Both the position numbers and the translations under genes were made by a program. From Myxococcales bacterium (lineage in GTDB: Bacteria; Myxococcota_A; Polyangia; GCA-2747355), in the NCBI GenBank assembly GCA_020431405.1, contig JAGQIK010000712.1:1-40178 (forward strand): 40,178 nucleotides of DNA, in the 5' to 3' direction. The notes beneath the pieces are model-generated. The model was given only the letters and a program-made list of their open reading frames with translations. It did no database searches and was not told the origin of the DNA. Below are positions 24,123 through 33,718 of this stretch, piece after piece; the first letter of the stretch is position 1, and each line of letters opens with the position of its first letter.

Positions 24123-25751
24123 CTACCTCGAGACGGAGCCGGTCAAGGCGCTACCGCCGACGAGCAGCAGCGAGCGCAGATCCTGATCGTTGAAGCGGAT
24201 CTGAGCGCCAAGGAAGAAGTCGCGGCCGCCGCCGGTGCCGTCGCGCGGGCGCTCGTTGAAGAGGTCATCGACGCCGCCGACGATGTAGAGCCGCTTGAAG
24301 AACTCCCAGGCGACGAGGGTCTTGAGGCGCGGATAGATGTTTGCCTGAAAATCGAAGATGTCGGCCGTGATCCAGAGGTGGTCGTTGAACAGGTGCACGT
24401 CGAAGCCGAGGCCGCCCGTGCTCTCCTTGATGCCGAAGCGGCCGGTGAACGGGCCGACGCGCTTGGCGAACATGAAGCTGAAGCGGAAGCTGTCGGTGAC
24501 GGTGACCTTGGTCTCGCGCACGTCGCCGGCCGACCCCGGGTCGTTGCTGGTGGTCAGCGTCTGGGTGACGGTGCGCTGGCCGCGCGGGTCGTCGATGAGC
24601 TCGATCATGTAGTACTTGTCGGGGCGCGGCCGCAGCTCCACCGTCAGGTACGTCTTGATCGAGCCGGCGAGGAAGTTGTACTCGCTGCGCAGCCCGACGA
24701 ACGTCTGCAGGCCCACCAGCGACTTGATGAAGCCGCCGGCGTCGCGCACGACGCCCTCGACGTCGTTGATCAGCGTCTCGTCCTTGAGCAGGCGCCCCAC
24801 GGTGCCTTTGCCCTCTTCGACGCCCTGGGCGATCTTCTTGACGTTGCCCATGGCGTTGTCGAGCTTGTCGGCCGCCGAGGTCAGCTTGTAGATGCCCTGC
24901 TTGAGCGACTTGCTGTACTTCTTGAGGTCGCCCTTGTCGCCAGCCACCACCTCGCGCACGGTCTTGGTCACCGCCTTGATGTCGGCGAGGATCTGTTTGA
25001 CGTCGGCCGGCGTGCCCGCGGTGACGGCGCGGATGTCGCGCGTGATGCGGTCGACGTTGCGCAGGATGCCGGCGATGGCCTTGCGGTTCTCTGCGATGCC
25101 GTCGTTGATGTTCTTGCCGATCTTGGAGAGCGGGCCGCGCACGAAGCCGCGGATGTCCTGCGCCAGGCCCTTGACCACCGGCATCAGGTCGCTGACCTGC
25201 TGCACCAGCTTGGGCGCGGTGGCGGCCTCGCCGACGTAGCGGATGCGATCGCCGTCCTTGAGCACCTCGCCTTCGTGGCGCTTGCAGCGCGACTTGGGCG
25301 AGAGCTGATCGCAGTAGGGGCGCGCGACCTGCTCGCCGCTGAGGGTGTCTTCGTACCAGACGTGCGTGCCGGGATCGATCTCGAGGTAGAACTCGCCCAG
25401 CAGCGAGGCGCTGCGCTTGTAGATCACCGCGTTGGAGTAGATGCGCGGCACGAGCTTGCGCCGCAGCGCCACCGTGACCTTGGCGAAGCGCTTCTGCTTG
25501 ATCAGGTGCTTGCCCTTGGGCGCGACGTTGAGCTCGCGCGAGACGATGTAGCCGATGTTGATGCCGGCGATCTGCACGCGCGACTTCTCGACGAGCAGCG
25601 TGGCGTCCTTGAAGAAGGCATGCAGGCGGATGATGCCCTGGTCCTCTGAGGCGCAGCTGCCCTTGGCCAGCATCATGAAGGCCCAGTAACCCAACGCCGC
25701 GACGACGACGAAGGTGAGACCGACCTTGAGTGCGGGACCGAGGTTTCGCAC
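24123..25751 (-). CDS. MCE-family lipid-transport protein with predicted C-terminal barrel
   Basis: This is the substrate-binding MCE (MlaD-type) component. A membrane anchor (about 8-28) is followed by an MCE domain (about 38-128) with the signature VQIAGINIGYIV and the SLLGEFYLEIDPG end. Residues 180-345 are a long helical region, heptad-like in places (KSLKQGIYKLTSAADKLDNAMGNVKK). The last 190 residues change character: ten or so alternating strands such as KYYMIELIDD, SFRFSFMFAK, GGLGFDVHLF, HLWITADIFDFQANIY and KRLYIVGGVDDLF, as in an outer-membrane barrel. MlaD itself is only about 180 residues. The protein may thus span from inner to outer membrane; this is inferred. Its stop is the end of the mla set. 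Confidence 0.8.
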   Translation of the reverse strand: MRNLGPALKVGLTFVVVAALGYWAFMMLAKGSCASEDQGIIRLHAFFKDATLLVEKSRVQIAGINIGYIVSRELNVAPKGKHLIKQKRFAKVTVALRRKLVPRIYSNAVIYKRSASLLGEFYLEIDPGTHVWYEDTLSGEQVARPYCDQLSPKSRCKRHEGEVLKDGDRIRYVGEAATAPKLVQQVSDLMPVVKGLAQDIRGFVRGPLSKIGKNINDGIAENRKAIAGILRNVDRITRDIRAVTAGTPADVKQILADIKAVTKTVREVVAGDKGDLKKYSKSLKQGIYKLTSAADKLDNAMGNVKKIAQGVEEGKGTVGRLLKDETLINDVEGVVRDAGGFIKSLVGLQTFVGLRSEYNFLAGSIKTYLTVELRPRPDKYYMIELIDDPRGQRTVTQTLTTSNDPGSAGDVRETKVTVTDSFRFSFMFAKRVGPFTGRFGIKESTGGLGFDVHLFNDHLWITADIFDFQANIYPRLKTLVAWEFFKRLYIVGGVDDLFNERPRDGTGGGRDFFLGAQIRFNDQDLRSLLLVGGSALTGSVSR

Positions 25752-25754
25752 GTT

Positions 25755-26645
25755 CTACCTGCGCACTTCCGCGGTAGCCACGTTGACGCCAGAGTGCTCG
25801 AGGAACTCGCGCAACTGCGGGTGGTCGTTGGTGATGATCTCGCTGGGGGACCCGCTGGCCACGATTTGCCCCTTGTACAGCATCGATACTCGGTGGCCAA
25901 TGCGAAACGTCGAGGCCATGTCGTGGCTGATGACGACGCTGGTCACGCCGAGCTGCTCTGAGATCTCTGCGATCATCTCGTCGACGTTCTTGGTGGCGAT
26001 GGGATCGAGGCCCGTCGTGGGCTCGTCGTAGAACAGCACCTCCGGCTGCGTGATGATCGCGCGCGCCAGGCCGACGCGCTTGCGCATGCCGCCCGAAAGC
26101 TCGGCGGGGTACTTCTGCTCGACGTTGTAGAGGCCCAGCGACTGCAGCTTCTCGCGCACCAGCTCCTTCATCTGCGCGCGCGACATCTCCTTCTTCCTGT
26201 GCTCGAGCAGCGGGAACATCACGTTCTCCTCGACGGTCATCGAGTCGAACAGCGCCGCGTACTGAAAGAGCATGCCGAACTTGCGGCGCACGCGATTGAG
26301 CTGGTAGTCGTCGAGCGGCACGATGTCCTCGCCGTCGACATAGATGTGGCCCGCGGTCGGCTTGAGCAGGCCGATGAGGTGCTTCATCATCACTGACTTG
26401 CCGGCGCCCGAGCCGCCGATGATGACGTTGATGTGGCCGCGCTCGATGTCGAGGTCGACGCCGCGCAGCACCTCGTGCTCGCCGAAGGTCTTGGCCAGCC
26501 CGCGCACGCGGATCTGATGGTTCTCGGAGCGCTGCTCGAGCCCGCTGGCGTCGTCGCCAGCAGCGGCGCCGCGCGCGCGCACCTGCGTGACGTCGCCGTC
26601 GCCGTGGGCTTGCTGCTTTGCCCGCTCTTTGCTCGCCCGCGCCAC
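25755..26645 (-). CDS. ABC transporter ATP-binding protein, MlaF-type
   Basis: All ATPase motifs are present: Walker A GGSGAGKS, Q-loop near FGMLFQYAALFDSMTVEENV, signature LSGGMRKR, Walker B VLFYDEPTTGLD and the switch His in VVISHDM. The FQYAALFDSMTV block and LLEHRKK are typical of MlaF (Ttg2A) which powers phospholipid movement with MlaE. The first 45 residues are an extra charged, glutamine/alanine-rich segment not seen in E. coli MlaF. The start is GTG 26645, directly after the permease stop. Confidence 0.92.
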   Translation of the reverse strand: MARASKERAKQQAHGDGDVTQVRARGAAAGDDASGLEQRSENHQIRVRGLAKTFGEHEVLRGVDLDIERGHINVIIGGSGAGKSVMMKHLIGLLKPTAGHIYVDGEDIVPLDDYQLNRVRRKFGMLFQYAALFDSMTVEENVMFPLLEHRKKEMSRAQMKELVREKLQSLGLYNVEQKYPAELSGGMRKRVGLARAIITQPEVLFYDEPTTGLDPIATKNVDEMIAEISEQLGVTSVVISHDMASTFRIGHRVSMLYKGQIVASGSPSEIITNDHPQLREFLEHSGVNVATAEVRR

Positions 26646-27449
26646 CTAGAAGCCGACCTGCATCAGGATCTGGGTCAGCACGAAGTCCATCACCAGGATC
26701 GCCACCGACGTGATAACGACCGTACGCATGGTGGCGATGCCGACGCCCTTGGCGCCACCGCCCGCGTTGTAACCCTGATGACAGCCGACCAGTGCCAGCA
26801 TCAATCCGAAGAAGGTGGCTTTGATCAGCCCCATGCCGAGGTCGCCGACGTCGGTGTACCAACGGATGTTGTGGATGAAGATCCCCTCATCTACGCCCAT
26901 CACGAGCACGACGAAGACGTACGCGCCGAACATGCCGCAGACGTTGAAGACGATGGTCAGGATCGGCAGCATCACGGTGGCGGCGATGAGGCGCGGGACG
27001 ACGAGGTATTGGATCGGGTTAACGCCGAGCGTGGCGAGGGCGTCGATCTGTTCGCTGATGCGCATCGAGCCGAGCTCGGTGGCCATCGCCGAGCCGGCGC
27101 GCCCCGAGACCATCAGCGCGCTGATCACGGGCGCGATCTCGCGCGTCAGCGTCAGCGAGACCGCGGTGCCGACGTAGCCGTCGGCCTGAAAGACGCGGAA
27201 GGCCTTGACGCTCTGCAGGCCGAACACGCCGCCGGTGAACATGCTGACCAGCACGATGATCGACAGCGAGCCGACGCCGATGAACTCCATCGCCTGCAGC
27301 GTCAGGCCGATGCGGTACGGCGGACGCAGGCCCCACAGAAAGGCGCGCCCCAACATCGTCAGCATCTCGCCGAGCGTGTCGAGAAATCGTATCGGTGTGG
27401 CCCAGATGCGATCGATGCCGCGCGACATCGACGAGATGAGCTTGCTCAC
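26646..27449 (-). CDS. ABC transporter permease, MlaE-type
   Basis: MlaE permeases pair with MlaF and MCE proteins in the inner membrane. The 267-residue protein has about six hydrophobic segments and the family block LTREIAPVISALMVSGRAGSAMATELGSMRISEQIDAL, the EQ-loop region that contacts the ATPase, here split only by name. It then shows RLIAATVMLPILTIVFN and MGLIKATFFGLMLALVGCHQGYN. The start is GTG 27449, overlapping the alr stop by four bases, so it is coupled to alr. No MlaB STAS or MlaC gene is nearby. Confidence 0.92.
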   Translation of the reverse strand: MSKLISSMSRGIDRIWATPIRFLDTLGEMLTMLGRAFLWGLRPPYRIGLTLQAMEFIGVGSLSIIVLVSMFTGGVFGLQSVKAFRVFQADGYVGTAVSLTLTREIAPVISALMVSGRAGSAMATELGSMRISEQIDALATLGVNPIQYLVVPRLIAATVMLPILTIVFNVCGMFGAYVFVVLVMGVDEGIFIHNIRWYTDVGDLGMGLIKATFFGLMLALVGCHQGYNAGGGAKGVGIATMRTVVITSVAILVMDFVLTQILMQVGF

Positions 27450-28633
27450 GGGCGCTCCTCTCGTCGCGTCTCGGGCTCTTCGCTGAATGCAGGCTCCTCT
27501 CCGACGTAGACTCGCGGCACGCGCTTTCCGATGCCTGCGAGCACCTCGTAGGAGATCGTCTGCGCCCAGCCGGCGAGCTCGTCGGGGGTGATCGAATCGT
27601 CGCCGTCCTCGCCGAGCAGCGTGACGGTGTCGCCGACGGCGGTGCCCGGCACGTCGGTGACGTCGACCATGCAGAGGTCCATACACACGCGGCCGACCAC
27701 CGGCGCGCGGCGGCCGCGCACGAGCACCTCGGCGCGGTTGGACAGCGCGCGCGGGTACCCGTCGGCGTAGCCCACCGGCAGCGTGGCGATGCGCGAGGGG
27801 CGCGAGGTGACGTAGGTCGCGCTGTAGCTGATGCGCGTGCCGGCCGGCGCGTCACGCATGGCGTTGATGCGCGTGCGCAGGCTCATCACCGGCTTGAAGC
27901 CGGGGTCTGGCACCTCGCTCGAGGGCAGCGCGCCGTAGAGCACGAGGCCGGTGCGCACCAGGTCGAAGCGCGCGTCGGGGAAGCGCAGCGCGGCCGCCGA
28001 GTTGGCGGCGTGGATGACCTGCGGGTCGCCGCCGACGGCGCGCACCGCGTGCAGGCACTCGACGAACAGCGCCAGCTGCTGCTCGGTGCTGCTGGCGTCG
28101 GGCTCCTCGGCGCACGCGAAGTGCGTAGCGAGGCCGTCGACGCGAATCGAGGGGTAGCGTGCACAGCGGCGCAGGAATGCGTCGAGCTCGCGCGCCATCA
28201 CGCCGAGGCGTGTCATGCCGGTGTCGATTTTGACGTGGATGCCGAAACGCACGCGGTCGGCGCGCGACGCGGCCTCGGCGAAGCGGTCGACGTCGCCCGG
28301 ATCGCCGACCACCGGTGTGAGGTCGTGCTCGATGACGGCGTCGTGGCGATCGCCGAAGGCGGCGCCCATCACCAGGATCGGCAGCCGCACGCCCGCGGCG
28401 CGCAGCTCGGCGCCCTCCTCCACCGTGGCGACGCCGAAGCCCCACACGCCGACGCCCTCGAGCAGGCGCGCCACCCGCGGGGCGCCGTGTCCGTAGGCGT
28501 CGGCTTTGACCACCGCGATGACCCCCACCTCGGGACCAACCACCGAGCGCAGGCAGCGAAAGTTATCGCTGAGCCGTCGCAGGTCGACGCGCGCTTCGGT
28601 GGGGCGCACGCCTGATGGAGGATTGGGCGTCAC
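27446..28633 (-). CDS. alr: Alanine racemase
   Basis: Alr supplies D-alanine for peptidoglycan. It has 395 residues, PLP Lys43 in VVKADAYGHG and catalytic Tyr270 in ISYSATY, with the RVDLRRLSDNF start and GRVCMDLCMVDVTD near the C-terminal domain. The start is GTG 28633, or perhaps GTG 28609; neither has a clear ribosome site, and a perfect inverted repeat ends right at 28634. Its C-terminal 20 residues (EEPAFSEEPETRREERP) are an acidic extra. It is translationally coupled to the mlaE-type gene, an unusual pairing. Confidence 0.93.
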   Translation of the reverse strand: MTPNPPSGVRPTEARVDLRRLSDNFRCLRSVVGPEVGVIAVVKADAYGHGAPRVARLLEGVGVWGFGVATVEEGAELRAAGVRLPILVMGAAFGDRHDAVIEHDLTPVVGDPGDVDRFAEAASRADRVRFGIHVKIDTGMTRLGVMARELDAFLRRCARYPSIRVDGLATHFACAEEPDASSTEQQLALFVECLHAVRAVGGDPQVIHAANSAAALRFPDARFDLVRTGLVLYGALPSSEVPDPGFKPVMSLRTRINAMRDAPAGTRISYSATYVTSRPSRIATLPVGYADGYPRALSNRAEVLVRGRRAPVVGRVCMDLCMVDVTDVPGTAVGDTVTLLGEDGDDSITPDELAGWAQTISYEVLAGIGKRVPRVYVGEEPAFSEEPETRREERP

Positions 28634-28717: not shown

Positions 28718-29434
28718 CTAGGCGGCGCGGCGCGCGCTGGCGACGAGCTGAGGACGCAGCAGCAGGCTGCGGCCGCGCGACACGACGAGACCGCGGCGCG
28801 CCATCGCGGACAGCGCGCGAGAGACCGTCTCGCGACAGGTGCCGACCATGTTCGCCAGGTCCTGCTGGGTCGGACGATAACGGATCAGAATGCCGTCCTC
28901 GCTCTCCTCGCCGACCTCTTCCGCGAGCGTGATCAACGTGCGGGTGAGGCGCGAGTTGACATCGTGAAGCGCGAGGTTGGCGATGATGTCGGCCGAGGAG
29001 CGCACGCGGCTAGCCATCGACTCGAGCAGCGCGCGCATGGTGCGCGGGTGCATCTCGAGGTGGTCGAGGAAGGCCTCGCGGTCGAGCACGAGGAGGATCG
29101 CGTCGTCGGCGGCGACGACGTTGGCAGCGCGTGGTTTGCTGTCGATGAGGGAGAGCTCGCCGAAGAAGTCGCCGGTGCGAAGGGTGGCGAGGGTGATTTC
29201 GCGGCCGTTCTCGCCGAAGAGTGACACCTTGGCGCGACCGCCGTAGACGATGTAGAGCGCCTGGTCCATCTCGTGTTGGCCGACGATGATGGCTCCAGCC
29301 GTCCAGCGCTTGACGCTCATCCTGCGTGCCAGGTCACCGAGGACCGTCTCGTCGAGGTGTCGGAAGATCGAGACGCGGCGAAGTAGGTCCGCTTGGCGAT
29401 TGAGCCCGATGATCGTCTCCAGCTTGTCAGCCAT
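28718..29434 (-). CDS. Crp/Fnr-family transcription regulator
   Basis: The 238 residues divide into a cyclic-nucleotide-binding-like beta-roll (about 22-140) with GDFFGELSLIDSKPRAANVVA, a dimer helix, and a winged helix-turn-helix with LTQQDLANMVGTCRETVSRALSAM-like spacing (here TQQDLANMVGTCRETVSRA). GELSLI..PRAA keeps the acidic and arginine residues that hold cyclic nucleotides in CRP. There is no N-terminal FNR-type cysteine cluster. The ATG follows a GGAGGGA. A sigma-54-type promoter and an inverted repeat precede it. Ligand unknown. Confidence 0.88.
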   Translation of the reverse strand: MADKLETIIGLNRQADLLRRVSIFRHLDETVLGDLARRMSVKRWTAGAIIVGQHEMDQALYIVYGGRAKVSLFGENGREITLATLRTGDFFGELSLIDSKPRAANVVAADDAILLVLDREAFLDHLEMHPRTMRALLESMASRVRSSADIIANLALHDVNSRLTRTLITLAEEVGEESEDGILIRYRPTQQDLANMVGTCRETVSRALSAMARRGLVVSRGRSLLLRPQLVASARRAA

Positions 29435-29724: not shown

Positions 29725-30687
29725 CTATTCGTACACCGGCAGGGCTTTGCAGTTGGCGAAGGAGCCCTCCTTCACGCAGCCCTCGAAGCCCATACCCTTG
29801 CAGTCGAAGGTGCGGCGCTTGCCGTCGATGCAGACGACGAGGGTGTCGCCCTGGCACTCGTCGAAGAACGAGTCGGTGTTGCACTCGGTGCCCGCGCCCA
29901 CGCAGTCGGCCAGGCCCGTATCGCACTTCTTGCTGCCGAACTCCTTGGAGCAGTCGCGGACCCACTCGTAGCCCTGCTCGCAGCGAAACACCGAATCACC
30001 GCGACACTCGGGGGAGAAGTCGCGGCAGCTGCGCCCTTTGCCTTCGCAGACGCCCTTCTTGGGATCGCGGCACTGCAGGCCCTGCTCGGGGCAGTCGATG
30101 ATCTCGATGGCGCCGCCCACGCACTGCAGCAGCTTCTGGTCGGTGCTGCAGTCGGCCTTGAACTGCTGTTCGTCGCAGGTGCCGCCGCCGCAGACGGCTT
30201 GCGTCTGCGAGCCGGCCTTCTTGAGGCCGCACTTGAGCCCGCCCAGCGAGCACTTGATGCCCTGCTCCCACTTGGCCAGCAGATCGCAGTTGTAGGCGAC
30301 GTCGCCGTCACAGCGCGGCTGGTAGCCCGTGCCGCAGGTCTGAGGCTTGCCCTGAAAGCCGAGGCACTCGCGGATGATCTTGCAGTCACCCTTGCCGGCG
30401 TTGGCGCAGCGATACATCGACTGGTACAGCGCGCGCTGGCCAAAGCGCACGAAGCGGTTGTAAAAGTCGCTGAAGCAGTCGCCGGTGCGCGGGTGTTTCT
30501 GGATGCCGCAGGCGTGCAGTCGGACGCAGGCTTCGAGCACCTGGTCCTCGTTCATCGGCGTGTTGTCGATCTTGCCGTCGGTGCCGCCGTCCGGCGTGTT
30601 GTTGCTGTCGTTCTTGCCGCAACCTGCGAGGATTGCGAAGACCCCCAACACCACCAGCCCAGCAAATGCTCTTCGTGCGCGAACCAC
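29725..30687 (-). CDS. Cysteine-rich lipoprotein
   Basis: The 320-residue protein starts at GTG 30687 (GGAGAA ahead) with a lipoprotein signal ending AILAGC. After an acidic, asparagine-rich linker (GKNDSNNTPDGG) come roughly 30 cysteines in a loose repeat of the form C-x-G-D-x-(V/L)-x-x-C-x-x-G...DC....G..C, seen near CDGDVAYNCDLLAKWEQGIKC, CRGDSVFRCEQGYEWVRDC and CQGDTLVVCIDGKRRTFDC. Each unit looks like a small disulfide-bonded beta module of about 40 residues. Such proteins are frequent in myxobacteria and unassigned. No enzyme motif is seen. Likely exposed on the outer membrane. Confidence 0.7.
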   Translation of the reverse strand: MVRARRAFAGLVVLGVFAILAGCGKNDSNNTPDGGTDGKIDNTPMNEDQVLEACVRLHACGIQKHPRTGDCFSDFYNRFVRFGQRALYQSMYRCANAGKGDCKIIRECLGFQGKPQTCGTGYQPRCDGDVAYNCDLLAKWEQGIKCSLGGLKCGLKKAGSQTQAVCGGGTCDEQQFKADCSTDQKLLQCVGGAIEIIDCPEQGLQCRDPKKGVCEGKGRSCRDFSPECRGDSVFRCEQGYEWVRDCSKEFGSKKCDTGLADCVGAGTECNTDSFFDECQGDTLVVCIDGKRRTFDCKGMGFEGCVKEGSFANCKALPVYE

Positions 30688-30784: not shown

Positions 30785-31393
30785 ATGAAGCGCGTCGCGG
30801 TCACGCTGCTGCTGCTCGTCATCATCGCCGCGGTGGTTGGCAAGCTCGTGGTGTTCGACATCGCGACCATCGCGGGCTCCGGTATGGCGCCCACGGTGCT
30901 GCCCGGCGACTGGCTCGTAGCCTACAAGCTCGACACCAAGCCTAAGCGCGGCGACCTCGTGCTGATGCAGCACCCCAAGCGCAACGTGGTGATGGTGCGC
31001 CGCGTGGTCGGTCTGCCCGGCGAGCGCGTGGCGGTGCGCGCCGAGGTGCCGCACGTCGATGGCAAGGCGGCCGCCCGCAAGGCGCTCGGCGAAGGCACGC
31101 TCTCGATGAGCGGTGAGAAGGTCAAGGTGCGGCGCATCGAGGAGCGCGTGGGCGGCGTGGGCTACGTCGTGCTCAAGGACCTCGGGCGGCGCTCGGTGGA
31201 CTTTGGCGAGGTCAAGCTCTCGGGCGCCTACTTCGTGATGGCCGACAACCGCAACCGCGGCACCGACAGCCGCACGTTCGGGCCGGTGCCCGAGGGCAAC
31301 ATTCGCGGCGTGATCGTCAAGCGGCTCAAGGCCGGCGAGCCGCGCATGGCTGGGGAGACGGCGCGCGGCGACTTCGCGCCGACCTTGAAGTAG
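30785..31393 (+). CDS. Signal peptidase I homologue lacking the catalytic pair
   Basis: The fold markers of S26 signal peptidases are clear: a single N-terminal membrane helix (about 4-22), then APTVLPGDWLVAYK, VRRVVGLPGERVAV and ADNRNRGTDSRTFGPVP with the box E layout. But the catalytic Ser-Met reads Gly33-Met34 (GSGMAPT, so the serine is displaced by one), and the catalytic Lys is Arg72 in VRRVVGLPGE. Both members of the dyad are therefore altered. At 202 residues it is close to normal minimal size. It is probably a non-cleaving relative; a shifted serine cannot be excluded. Start ATG 30785 has GGAG eight bases ahead. It is divergent from the cysteine-rich lipoprotein. Confidence 0.75.
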   Translation: MKRVAVTLLLLVIIAAVVGKLVVFDIATIAGSGMAPTVLPGDWLVAYKLDTKPKRGDLVLMQHPKRNVVMVRRVVGLPGERVAVRAEVPHVDGKAAARKALGEGTLSMSGEKVKVRRIEERVGGVGYVVLKDLGRRSVDFGEVKLSGAYFVMADNRNRGTDSRTFGPVPEGNIRGVIVKRLKAGEPRMAGETARGDFAPTLK

Positions 31394-32149: not shown

Positions 32150-33718
32150 ATGAGCGAACAACAGCAGAGCAGCGAGGCGCCGGTGGCGGCGGCACGGCGG
32201 ACGGTGCTGCTGGCCTGGTCCTCGCGCGACGCGGAGACGCGCATTCGCGCGCGCGCCCTCGCGGCGCGGCTGTCGCGCGCGACCCCGCGGTTGGACGTCA
32301 TCGAGGCTGACCTGCCGGAGCTGATGGGTGCGTTTTCGGTGGGCCAGACCATCGCCTCGCTGGTGGGCAGCGGCGCCGAGGCCGCCGTGCTGGCGCGCGT
32401 GGCAGGCCAGGCGCTCGAGGAGGAGCTGCGCCGGCGGCGCCCCACGCTCGCCGTGGCGCTCGATCCGACCGCCGCCGCGGTGCTGCGCACGTGGCGCCAG
32501 CGCGCGCTCGTGCCGGCGCCGTTGGTGGGCATCGCCGACGGGCTGCACCTCTCGTCGCGCTGGTACGACATCGATCCCGATCGCCTGCTGGTGCTCGACG
32601 AGCCGCAGGCCGAGGCAGCGCAGAAGCTCGGCGTCGAGCGCGAGCGGGCGCTGGTGGTCGCGGTCGAGCCTGCCGGCCTGCCGGTGGACGGCGACAAGCA
32701 CGCGCTGCGCGACCGCTTCGGCATCGACAGCTCGCTGCCGCTGGTGCTCGTCGACTGCGCGTCTGTCGGCGACGACACGCTCACCGACCTGCTGTTTCAG
32801 CTCAGCCTCGCGGTCGACAAGTGCAACGTGCTCTTCGACACCGGACAGAGCGGCGACGAGACGCGCGAGCTTCTGCGCAGCCGAGCCGAGATCTACGGCG
32901 TCCCAGCGCAGATGTTTGGCGACGTGCCCGAGCGCGACGAGCTGTGGGCGGCCTGCGACGTGGTCATCGGCCGTCCGCGCGCGCTGCTCGAGCGTCGTGC
33001 CATCGCGGCGGATCTCGCGATCCTCGCCTACCTGCCCGAGGAGGGCGAGGAGACGGCGCGCAGCGCAGCCTACGAGCAGCGCGCCCTCGGGCGCGGCGTG
33101 ACGATGCCGACACTGCTCTCGGTGGAGCTCGAGCACATGGTCGCGCGAGAGGCGCTCGAGCTGGCGCGGCGGGCGGCGGCGCGCGTGCGGGAGGGGCAAC
33201 CCGTAGGCGAGGCGCTCGGCGAGCTGGCGTCAAGGTCCGACGCGATCCTCGCCGAGAGCGTGCGCCGCGAACGCGAGCGCGCGGCGCGGCCCGCCAAGCC
33301 GAGCAGCGACAAGCCCGAGGCGACCGCGCGCGCCAAGCTCGGCCCGCTGGAGTCCATCGGGCCTGGCGCCTCGCCGCCTGGACGCGAACCGGGGCTGGCC
33401 AGCGAGTCGTTGGCGACGGCCGCGCGGCGCGCCCGCGCCGAGCGCAACCTGCGCGAGATGCGTGCGCAGGAGGAGCTCGACCGCATCAAGCGCGAGCAGC
33501 TCGGCGCCGAGGCGCTGCGCGACTACGAGCGTGGCGACGCGCCGAGCACCAACACGCCCGCGCAGACGGACAAGGACAAGGCCGCCAACGACGCGCCGCA
33601 GCCGCAGGCCGCCGCAGAGCCCGAGGGCCGGCCCGTCGGGCTCGACCCGACCTTCAAGAAGCGCAGCCAGAAGGTCGAGGACGAGCTGGCCGCGCTAAAG
33701 AAGAAGATGCAGGAGTAA
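32150..33718 (+). CDS. GT-B-like protein with coiled-coil C-terminal tail
   Basis: The gene of 522 residues is not a known one. The first 290 residues resemble the two Rossmann halves of GT-B glycosyltransferases of the MurG/MGDG-synthase type: TVLLAWSSRDAETRIRARALAARL at the start, PAPLVGIADGLHLSSRWYDIDPDRLLV between halves, LPLVLVDCASVGDDTLTDLLFQLSLAV, and VPERDELWAACDVVIGRP near 260-277, which recalls the donor-site loop. No clear catalytic residue can be named. From about 330 on the protein is charged and helical, with a coiled-coil at about 425-465 and lysine-rich ends. It may be a structural or sugar-transfer factor; low certainty. AGGAG lies about 13 bases ahead of the ATG. Confidence 0.55.
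   Translation: MSEQQQSSEAPVAAARRTVLLAWSSRDAETRIRARALAARLSRATPRLDVIEADLPELMGAFSVGQTIASLVGSGAEAAVLARVAGQALEEELRRRRPTLAVALDPTAAAVLRTWRQRALVPAPLVGIADGLHLSSRWYDIDPDRLLVLDEPQAEAAQKLGVERERALVVAVEPAGLPVDGDKHALRDRFGIDSSLPLVLVDCASVGDDTLTDLLFQLSLAVDKCNVLFDTGQSGDETRELLRSRAEIYGVPAQMFGDVPERDELWAACDVVIGRPRALLERRAIAADLAILAYLPEEGEETARSAAYEQRALGRGVTMPTLLSVELEHMVAREALELARRAAARVREGQPVGEALGELASRSDAILAESVRRERERAARPAKPSSDKPEATARAKLGPLESIGPGASPPGREPGLASESLATAARRARAERNLREMRAQEELDRIKREQLGAEALRDYERGDAPSTNTPAQTDKDKAANDAPQPQAAAEPEGRPVGLDPTFKKRSQKVEDELAALKKKMQE

What the first reader, a model, noticed from the sequence alone, without database searches (positions are those of the whole stretch)
30785..31393. Signal peptidase I homologue with both catalytic residues changed
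The catalytic Ser before Met is glycine (Gly33), with a serine one place early, and the general-base Lys is Arg72. The membrane anchor and box-E motif are kept, so the fold seems intact. It sits divergent from a lipoprotein gene and not in a lepB-rnc setting. It could bind signal sequences without cutting, or use a shifted serine.
Basis: seen in the sequence. Interest (0 to 1): 0.72.

Follow-up and report, generated by a model that had tools for sequence, protein, structure and literature searches.

The report
Non-cutting signal peptidase lookalike family
This gene makes a membrane-anchored relative of the enzyme that trims export signals off secreted proteins, but its cutting machinery is gone; related dead versions are kept under selection across a whole bacterial class beside working enzymes, so the protein probably binds exported proteins rather than cutting them.

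Summary
ORF 30785-31393 (+) is a 202-aa S26 protein (PF10502 99 bits; TIGR02227 102 bits, above cut-off). Ser90 is Gly33 and Lys145 is Arg72; two supporting positions have also changed (Gly272 to Ala153, Ser278 to Gly159). Three other S26 genes in the same genome keep Ser and Lys. The nearest relative (51%) has Asp/Arg; others have Glu/Gly, Glu/Arg, Asp/Arg, Gly/Gly, Ala/Gly or Ser/Gly. Aligned Lys-less sequences (55 in the tree) form one side of a fully supported branch. Arg146, Asp273, Asp280, Ser281 and Arg282 stay invariant while the catalytic columns drift; dN/dS is below 1 in every pair tested. This is an old, selected pseudo-signal-peptidase family, not an error or a decaying gene. The 'shifted serine' idea fails: Ser32 is not conserved. 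A modest model matches SipA best (Z 13.7), the Streptococcus pyogenes non-catalytic SPase homologue needed for pilus assembly. Likely role: membrane-anchored periplasmic peptide-binding scaffold (inferred). In other families it sits beside thiSGE, yajC-secDF, sppA or a secreted YbjN-like protein. Two genomes of the window's order have no ThiG yet keep this gene. Kind known (SipA, SpsA); a class-wide Gram-negative family is a new variant.

The parts
30785..31393 (+). pseudo-signal peptidase (S26*), 202 aa
   Evidence: PF10502 99 bits at residues 6-178, TIGR02227 101.8 bits against cut-off 47; codon-position GC 0.71/0.44/0.95
30794..30856 (+). N-terminal membrane anchor, residues 4-24 (VAVTLLLLVIIAAVVGKLVVF), preceded by MKR, so the S26 domain is expected on the periplasmic side
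   Evidence: sequence; helix 2-23 in the model, pLDDT 80-88; topology inferred from the positive-inside rule
30869..30910 (+). box B, residues 29-42 (IAGSGMAPTVLPGD); nucleophile position is Gly33 (30881-30883), Ser32 one place early (30878-30880)
30998..31000 (+). Arg72 at the general-base Lys145 position, followed by the invariant Arg73 (Arg146 equivalent)
31226..31282 (+). box E, residues 148-166 (AYFVMADNRNRGTDSRTFG); Ala153 (31241-31243) at the Gly272 position, Gly159 (31259-31261) at the Ser278 position; Asp154, Arg156, Asp161, Ser162, Arg163 kept
29725..30687 (-). divergent Cys-rich lipoprotein gene; the divergent pair is also present in G003 (52% identity) but in none of the other enlarged loci
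   Evidence: no Pfam family
28718..29434 (-). CRP-type regulator, part of the conserved neighbourhood
27446..28633 (-). alanine racemase, part of the conserved neighbourhood (also next to S26* in f2, f11, f14, f20, f23, f32)
24123..27686 (-). mlaE-mlaF-mlaD lipid transport genes, part of the conserved neighbourhood
   Evidence: MlaE confirmed by Pfam; MlaF and MlaD named from the ORFs, not Pfam-tested

Best explanation
It is a member of an old family of type I signal peptidase (S26) paralogues that has lost proteolysis but keeps the fold, the membrane anchor and probably the peptide groove. Shown: no Ser nucleophile, no Lys base, Gly272 and Ser278 changed; the structural box residues are invariant across the family; the family is one side of one branch and under purifying selection; working S26 enzymes are encoded elsewhere in the same genome. 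Inferred: the S26 domain faces the periplasm and works like SipA of Streptococcus pyogenes, holding or presenting exported polypeptides (signal-peptide-like or other extended segments) at the membrane without cutting them. In some families the client or partner may be the secreted YbjN-like protein encoded next door; in the window's order it may be the divergent lipoprotein.
For:: dyad absent here and in relatives; in 89 Lys-less against 52 intact sequences Arg146, Asp273, Asp280, Ser281 and Arg282 are 100% in both; Ser90 has become G 35, S 34, A 10, D 4, E 4, T 2; Lys145 has become G 68, R 9, A 8, L 4; Ser278 and Gly272 drift; 55 Lys-less rows are one side of a branch (100/99) with catalytic columns left out of the tree; nucleophile column 17 changes, Lys column 6; dN/dS 0.04-0.8, below 1 in all 12 pairs (one with saturated dS); three intact S26 genes in the same genome; best structural match SipA (Z 13.7, rmsd 2.6, 126 aligned), then SpsB with peptide and E. 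coli LepB. PMC4049620: SipA has Asp and Gly at the dyad, Gly272 and Ser278 also replaced, and keeps the peptide-binding cleft; secreted YbjN-like neighbour in several families.
Against: No binding or client shown. The model is of modest confidence (pLDDT 62.6, residues 99-136 under 50). In SipA a mutation designed to block the groove did not stop pilus assembly (PMC4049620), so even there groove binding is not proven to be the function. The YbjN-like neighbour is missing in the window's lineage, and the neighbours differ between families.
Confidence: 0.5

Rival explanations
1. It binds signal sequences or the working signal peptidases and slows or tunes their cleavage (a decoy or regulator), as the first reader suggested in part.
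For: Same fold and box B/E scaffold; in one family it lies next to yajC-secD-secF, in another near an S49 (SppA-type) gene.
Against: No evidence of interaction with LepB; neighbours differ between families; pocket residues are only loosely conserved.
Confidence: 0.2
2. It has a job unrelated to polypeptide binding (for example lipid contact or a structural role in a membrane complex).
For: Ancestral neighbourhood is mlaEFD, alanine racemase, CRP and thiSGE, none of them a peptide pathway; the cap region (99-136) varies strongly.
Against: Box B and box E scaffold kept over large distances; thi genes can be lost without losing S26*.
Confidence: 0.18
3. It is still a protease that uses Ser32, Arg72 or another residue.
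For: A Ser lies one place early; about a third of the family keeps Ser at the nucleophile column.
Against: Ser32 column is not Ser in 87 of 89 relatives; nearest relative has Gln-Asp; Lys missing in all; Gly272 and Ser278, which shape and hold the Lys (PMC4049620), are also changed; no other conserved Lys/His takes their place.
Confidence: 0.04
4. A decaying duplicate or a sequencing error with no function.
For: Window gene itself has no close relative, so its own dN/dS cannot be measured; the same-family genomes G001 and G002 (83% and 67% complete) show no copy.
Against: Same loss in many families; invariant structural residues; dN/dS below 1; open frame and coding composition kept; kept after loss of the thi genes.
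Confidence: 0.06

Closest known systems
SipA/LepA of Streptococcus pyogenes (PDB 4n31, 4k8w; PMC4049620)
   Same: S26 fold with N-terminal anchor; Ser and Lys of the dyad replaced (Asp/Gly there; Gly/Arg here, Asp/Arg in G003, Glu/Gly in G004); Gly272 and Ser278 also replaced; best structural match
   Different: SipA sits in a sortase pilus cluster of Gram-positive bacteria; here a Gram-negative class, no pilus neighbours among the genes tested, standing next to alanine racemase/mla/thi genes
SpsA of Staphylococcus aureus (PMC12445088)
   Same: S26 paralogue that lacks two catalytic residues and coexists with a working enzyme
   Different: here no second S26 gene on the same 40-kb contig; family spread over a class rather than one genus as described
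Working type I signal peptidases (LepB, TIGR02227, PF10502)
   Same: fold, anchor, boxes B-E scaffold (Met91, Pro93, Gly98, Arg146, Asp273, Asp280, Ser281, Arg282)
   Different: no Ser-Lys dyad, Gly272 and Ser278 changed; yet it scores over the NCBIfam equivalog cut-off, so automatic annotation would call it signal peptidase I

Membership tests
Type I signal peptidase (active S26A) | S26 fold / family profile | tested here: met
   PF10502 99 bits, TIGR02227 101.8 bits; fold match Z 11-13.7 to SPases and SipA
Type I signal peptidase (active S26A) | Ser nucleophile before Met in box B | tested here: not met
   Gly33
Type I signal peptidase (active S26A) | Lys general base in box D | tested here: not met
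   Arg72; absent in all relatives of this branch
Type I signal peptidase (active S26A) | Gly272 and Ser278 next to the Lys | tested here: not met
   Ala153, Gly159; G and S in 52 of 52 intact sequences
Type I signal peptidase (active S26A) | signal peptide cleavage | not testable with these tools
   needs an assay
Non-catalytic S26 homologue of the SipA kind | S26 fold with both dyad residues replaced | tested here: met
Non-catalytic S26 homologue of the SipA kind | retained peptide-binding groove | tested here: inconclusive
   groove strands modelled with pLDDT roughly 60-86; pocket residues mostly still hydrophobic by alignment; no pocket computation or binding test
Non-catalytic S26 homologue of the SipA kind | pilus/sortase gene cluster | tested here: inconclusive
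   neighbours tested by Pfam are PilZ, polysaccharide deacetylase, AAA/TPR, CRP, alanine racemase, MlaE; not every gene of the window was tested
SpsA kind (inactive partner beside active SPase) | adjacent active paralogue | tested here: not met
   the three intact S26 genes lie on other contigs, C626, C698, C258

The most novel reading that the evidence does not exclude
A class-wide family of membrane-anchored pseudo-signal peptidases serves as a periplasmic peptide-binding module of Gram-negative bacteria, working in several families with a secreted YbjN/TY-chaperone-like protein encoded next to it: a so far undescribed step between Sec export and folding.
Probability: 0.15. Interest if true: 0.75.

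Novelty: new variant of a known kind. Interest (0 to 1): 0.52.

Why it matters
Inactive type I signal peptidases are known from a few Gram-positive bacteria. Here one is found as an inherited family over about fifteen family-level groups of one Gram-negative class, with a step-by-step record of catalytic loss (Lys gone in all, Ser kept in some, replaced by G, A, D, E or T in others) while the scaffold is frozen. It shows that a signal peptidase fold can be kept for something other than cutting, offers natural controls for which residues serve catalysis and which serve binding, and marks genes that pipelines label signal peptidase I by mistake.

Tried and rejected
Sequencing error: rejected, relatives share the loss. 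Shifted serine: rejected, column not conserved. Pseudogene: rejected on selection and conservation. Functional tie to thiamine synthesis: the thiS-thiG-thiE-S26* order is widespread, but G000 and G003 have no full-length ThiG hit and still carry S26*, so this looks like old neighbourhood rather than function. Scan of named genomes with the window protein found only two distant Lachnospiraceae proteins. Viral contigs hold no relative of the window protein. Promoter/terminator scan of the locus found nothing. The YbjN-like profile found no solved structure and no NCBIfam model. Literature searches found no description of this family in myxobacteria-like organisms; the library lacks most subscription papers.

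Full report
1. The observation. The ORF 30785-31393 (+) encodes 202 residues starting MKRVAVTLLLLVIIAAVVGKLVVF. Pfam places residues 6-178 in Peptidase_S26 (99 bits, cut-off 22.9) and NCBIfam in sigpep_I_bact (101.8 bits, cut-off 47), so a pipeline would name it signal peptidase I. Box B reads IAGSGMAPTVLPGD, so the residue before Met is Gly33; box D reads MVRRVVGLPG, so the base position is Arg72. Box E reads MADNRNRGTDSRTFG: the position of E. coli Gly272 is Ala153 and that of Ser278 is Gly159. In working enzymes a side chain at Gly272 would clash with the Lys, and Ser278 stabilises it (PMC4049620). So four catalytic-site positions have changed, not two.

2. Working enzymes are encoded elsewhere. 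The same genome (11.2 Mb, 733 contigs) has three more S26 genes, on C626 (386 aa, SGSM/IKR), C698 (SESM/IKR) and C258 (340 aa, SNSM/VKR). None lies on the window's contig.

3. It is a family. Searching 59 relatives and then 318 genomes of the class and reading the loci shows short (~205 aa) S26 proteins without the Lys in about fifteen family-level groups (f1-f4, f10-f12, f14, f20, f23, f24, f28-f30, f32). The nearest, 51% identical, in the same order (G003), reads GQDM/IRR; G004 GNEM/MGR; G045 SDEM/IRR; G012 GDDM/LRR; G005 SNDM/LRR; the f14, f32 and f28 groups mostly HNGM/VGR, with Ala or Ser for Gly in some; f10 NYSM or SYSM with VGR or VLR; f12 ASIAPT-type with VGR. Three more (L162/L190, L208, L212) come from another class of the phylum. 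S26* was not seen in the two other genomes of the window's own family, G001 and G002, which are 83% and 67% complete.

4. One branch, frozen scaffold. With the two catalytic columns left out of the alignment, the 55 Lys-less rows are one side of one branch against 21 Lys-bearing rows, support 100/99. Four Lachnospiraceae rows were left out there; with them in, that branch is broken by long branches. On that tree the nucleophile column changes 17 times and the Lys column 6 times. Across 89 Lys-less and 52 intact sequences Arg146, Asp273, Asp280, Ser281 and Arg282 are invariant in both sets and Arg275 nearly so, Gly98 and Pro93 nearly so; Ser90, Lys145, Ser88, Ser278 and Gly272 drift in the Lys-less set and are (nearly) invariant in the intact set. 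The Ser32 column, where a shifted nucleophile would have to be, is Ser in 2 of 89. Nei-Gojobori dN/dS in close pairs is 0.04-0.22 in f10, f14 and one f32 pair, and 0.37-0.80 in f12 and a second f32 pair, where high GC lowers the synonymous estimate. The window's own gene has no relative close enough for this test.

5. Fold. A single-sequence model failed (pLDDT 37). With ten S26 sequences that the tool permits (loci of the search for related loci) the model reached pLDDT 62.6, pTM 0.61, with the core strands at about 60-86 and residues 99-136 unreliable. Its best structural match is SipA (4n31: Z 13.7, rmsd 2.6, 126 residues), followed within about 1-2 Z by SpsB and E. coli LepB. Most helper sequences were working SPases, so the match to the family is expected; what it adds is that the substituted sequence is compatible with the fold.

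6. Surroundings. In the window the order is plsX, yceD, mlaD, mlaF, mlaE, alr, crp, lipoprotein, then S26* divergently, then a convergent PilZ gene and a tRNA-Thr. Parts of this order (alr with mlaE/mlaF and/or crp) recur beside S26* in f2, f11, f14, f20, f23 and f32, there usually with thiS-thiG-thiE directly before S26*, which supports orthology of the window protein with the HNGM/VGR group. G000 and G003 have no full-length ThiG, so S26* stayed when the thiamine genes went. In f10 S26* lies next to yajC-secD-secF or a Mur ligase gene; in f12 next to a trypsin-like protease gene or proB, with an S49 (SppA-type) gene nearby in several genomes. In f10, f24, f28, f32 and part of f14 the gene directly beside it, usually downstream, is a secreted protein of about 180 aa with two invariant Cys (alignment A3) related to YbjN (PF10722, best E 9.5e-8 over 5 of 9 members; weak hits to the TY-Chap peptide-binding chaperones). 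Among 59 relatives its seven strong hits all lie beside S26*; the window's lineage has none. Its order has instead the divergent lipoprotein (52% identical in G003).

7. Reading. Loss of catalysis is as well supported as sequence can make it. The function is inferred: the closest precedent, SipA, is a non-catalytic SPase needed for pilus polymerisation that keeps the peptide-binding cleft (PMC4049620); SpsA is another inactive SPase (PMC12445088). I take a membrane-anchored, periplasmic, peptide-binding scaffold or chaperone as the most likely role (about 0.5), a regulator of the working peptidases next (0.2), and a role without peptides next (0.18).

8. Novelty. The kind (inactive S26 homologue) is known; I found no description of a class-wide Gram-negative family (limited library). 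I rate it a new variant of a known kind.

Noticed in passing
L029 (G013), L032 (G021), L163 (G008), L166 (G020): A second, separate set of S26 proteins with a long N-terminal extension that have lost the Ser (PSAGM, PSSGM, PSAEM) but keep the Lys in three of four (IKR, IKR, VKR; IQR in the fourth). The window genome's own C258 protein (340 aa, PSNSM/VKR, intact) groups with the G008 member in the tree.
   Followed up: partly
L035 and L036, 4857-5432 (+): In Lachnospiraceae (Porcincola intestinalis and a MAG) an S26 gene with Ser kept and Lys replaced by Arg (GSSM/VRR) lies directly downstream of an intact one.
   Followed up: no
L083 7771-8355 (+), L173 6750-7376 (+), L183 9258-9800 (+) and others (alignment A3): Secreted YbjN/TY-Chap-like family with two invariant Cys and an NTDSNFDRRAFR motif, beside the pseudo-signal peptidase in several families; no NCBIfam model, only weak Pfam hits.
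   Followed up: partly
window 29725-30687 (-): Cys-rich lipoprotein with repeated C..G....C stretches and no Pfam family, conserved with the window's order only.
   Followed up: no
window 32150-33718 (+): 522-aa ORF with no Pfam match, directly after the tRNA-Thr gene; no homologue seen in the enlarged related loci.
   Followed up: no
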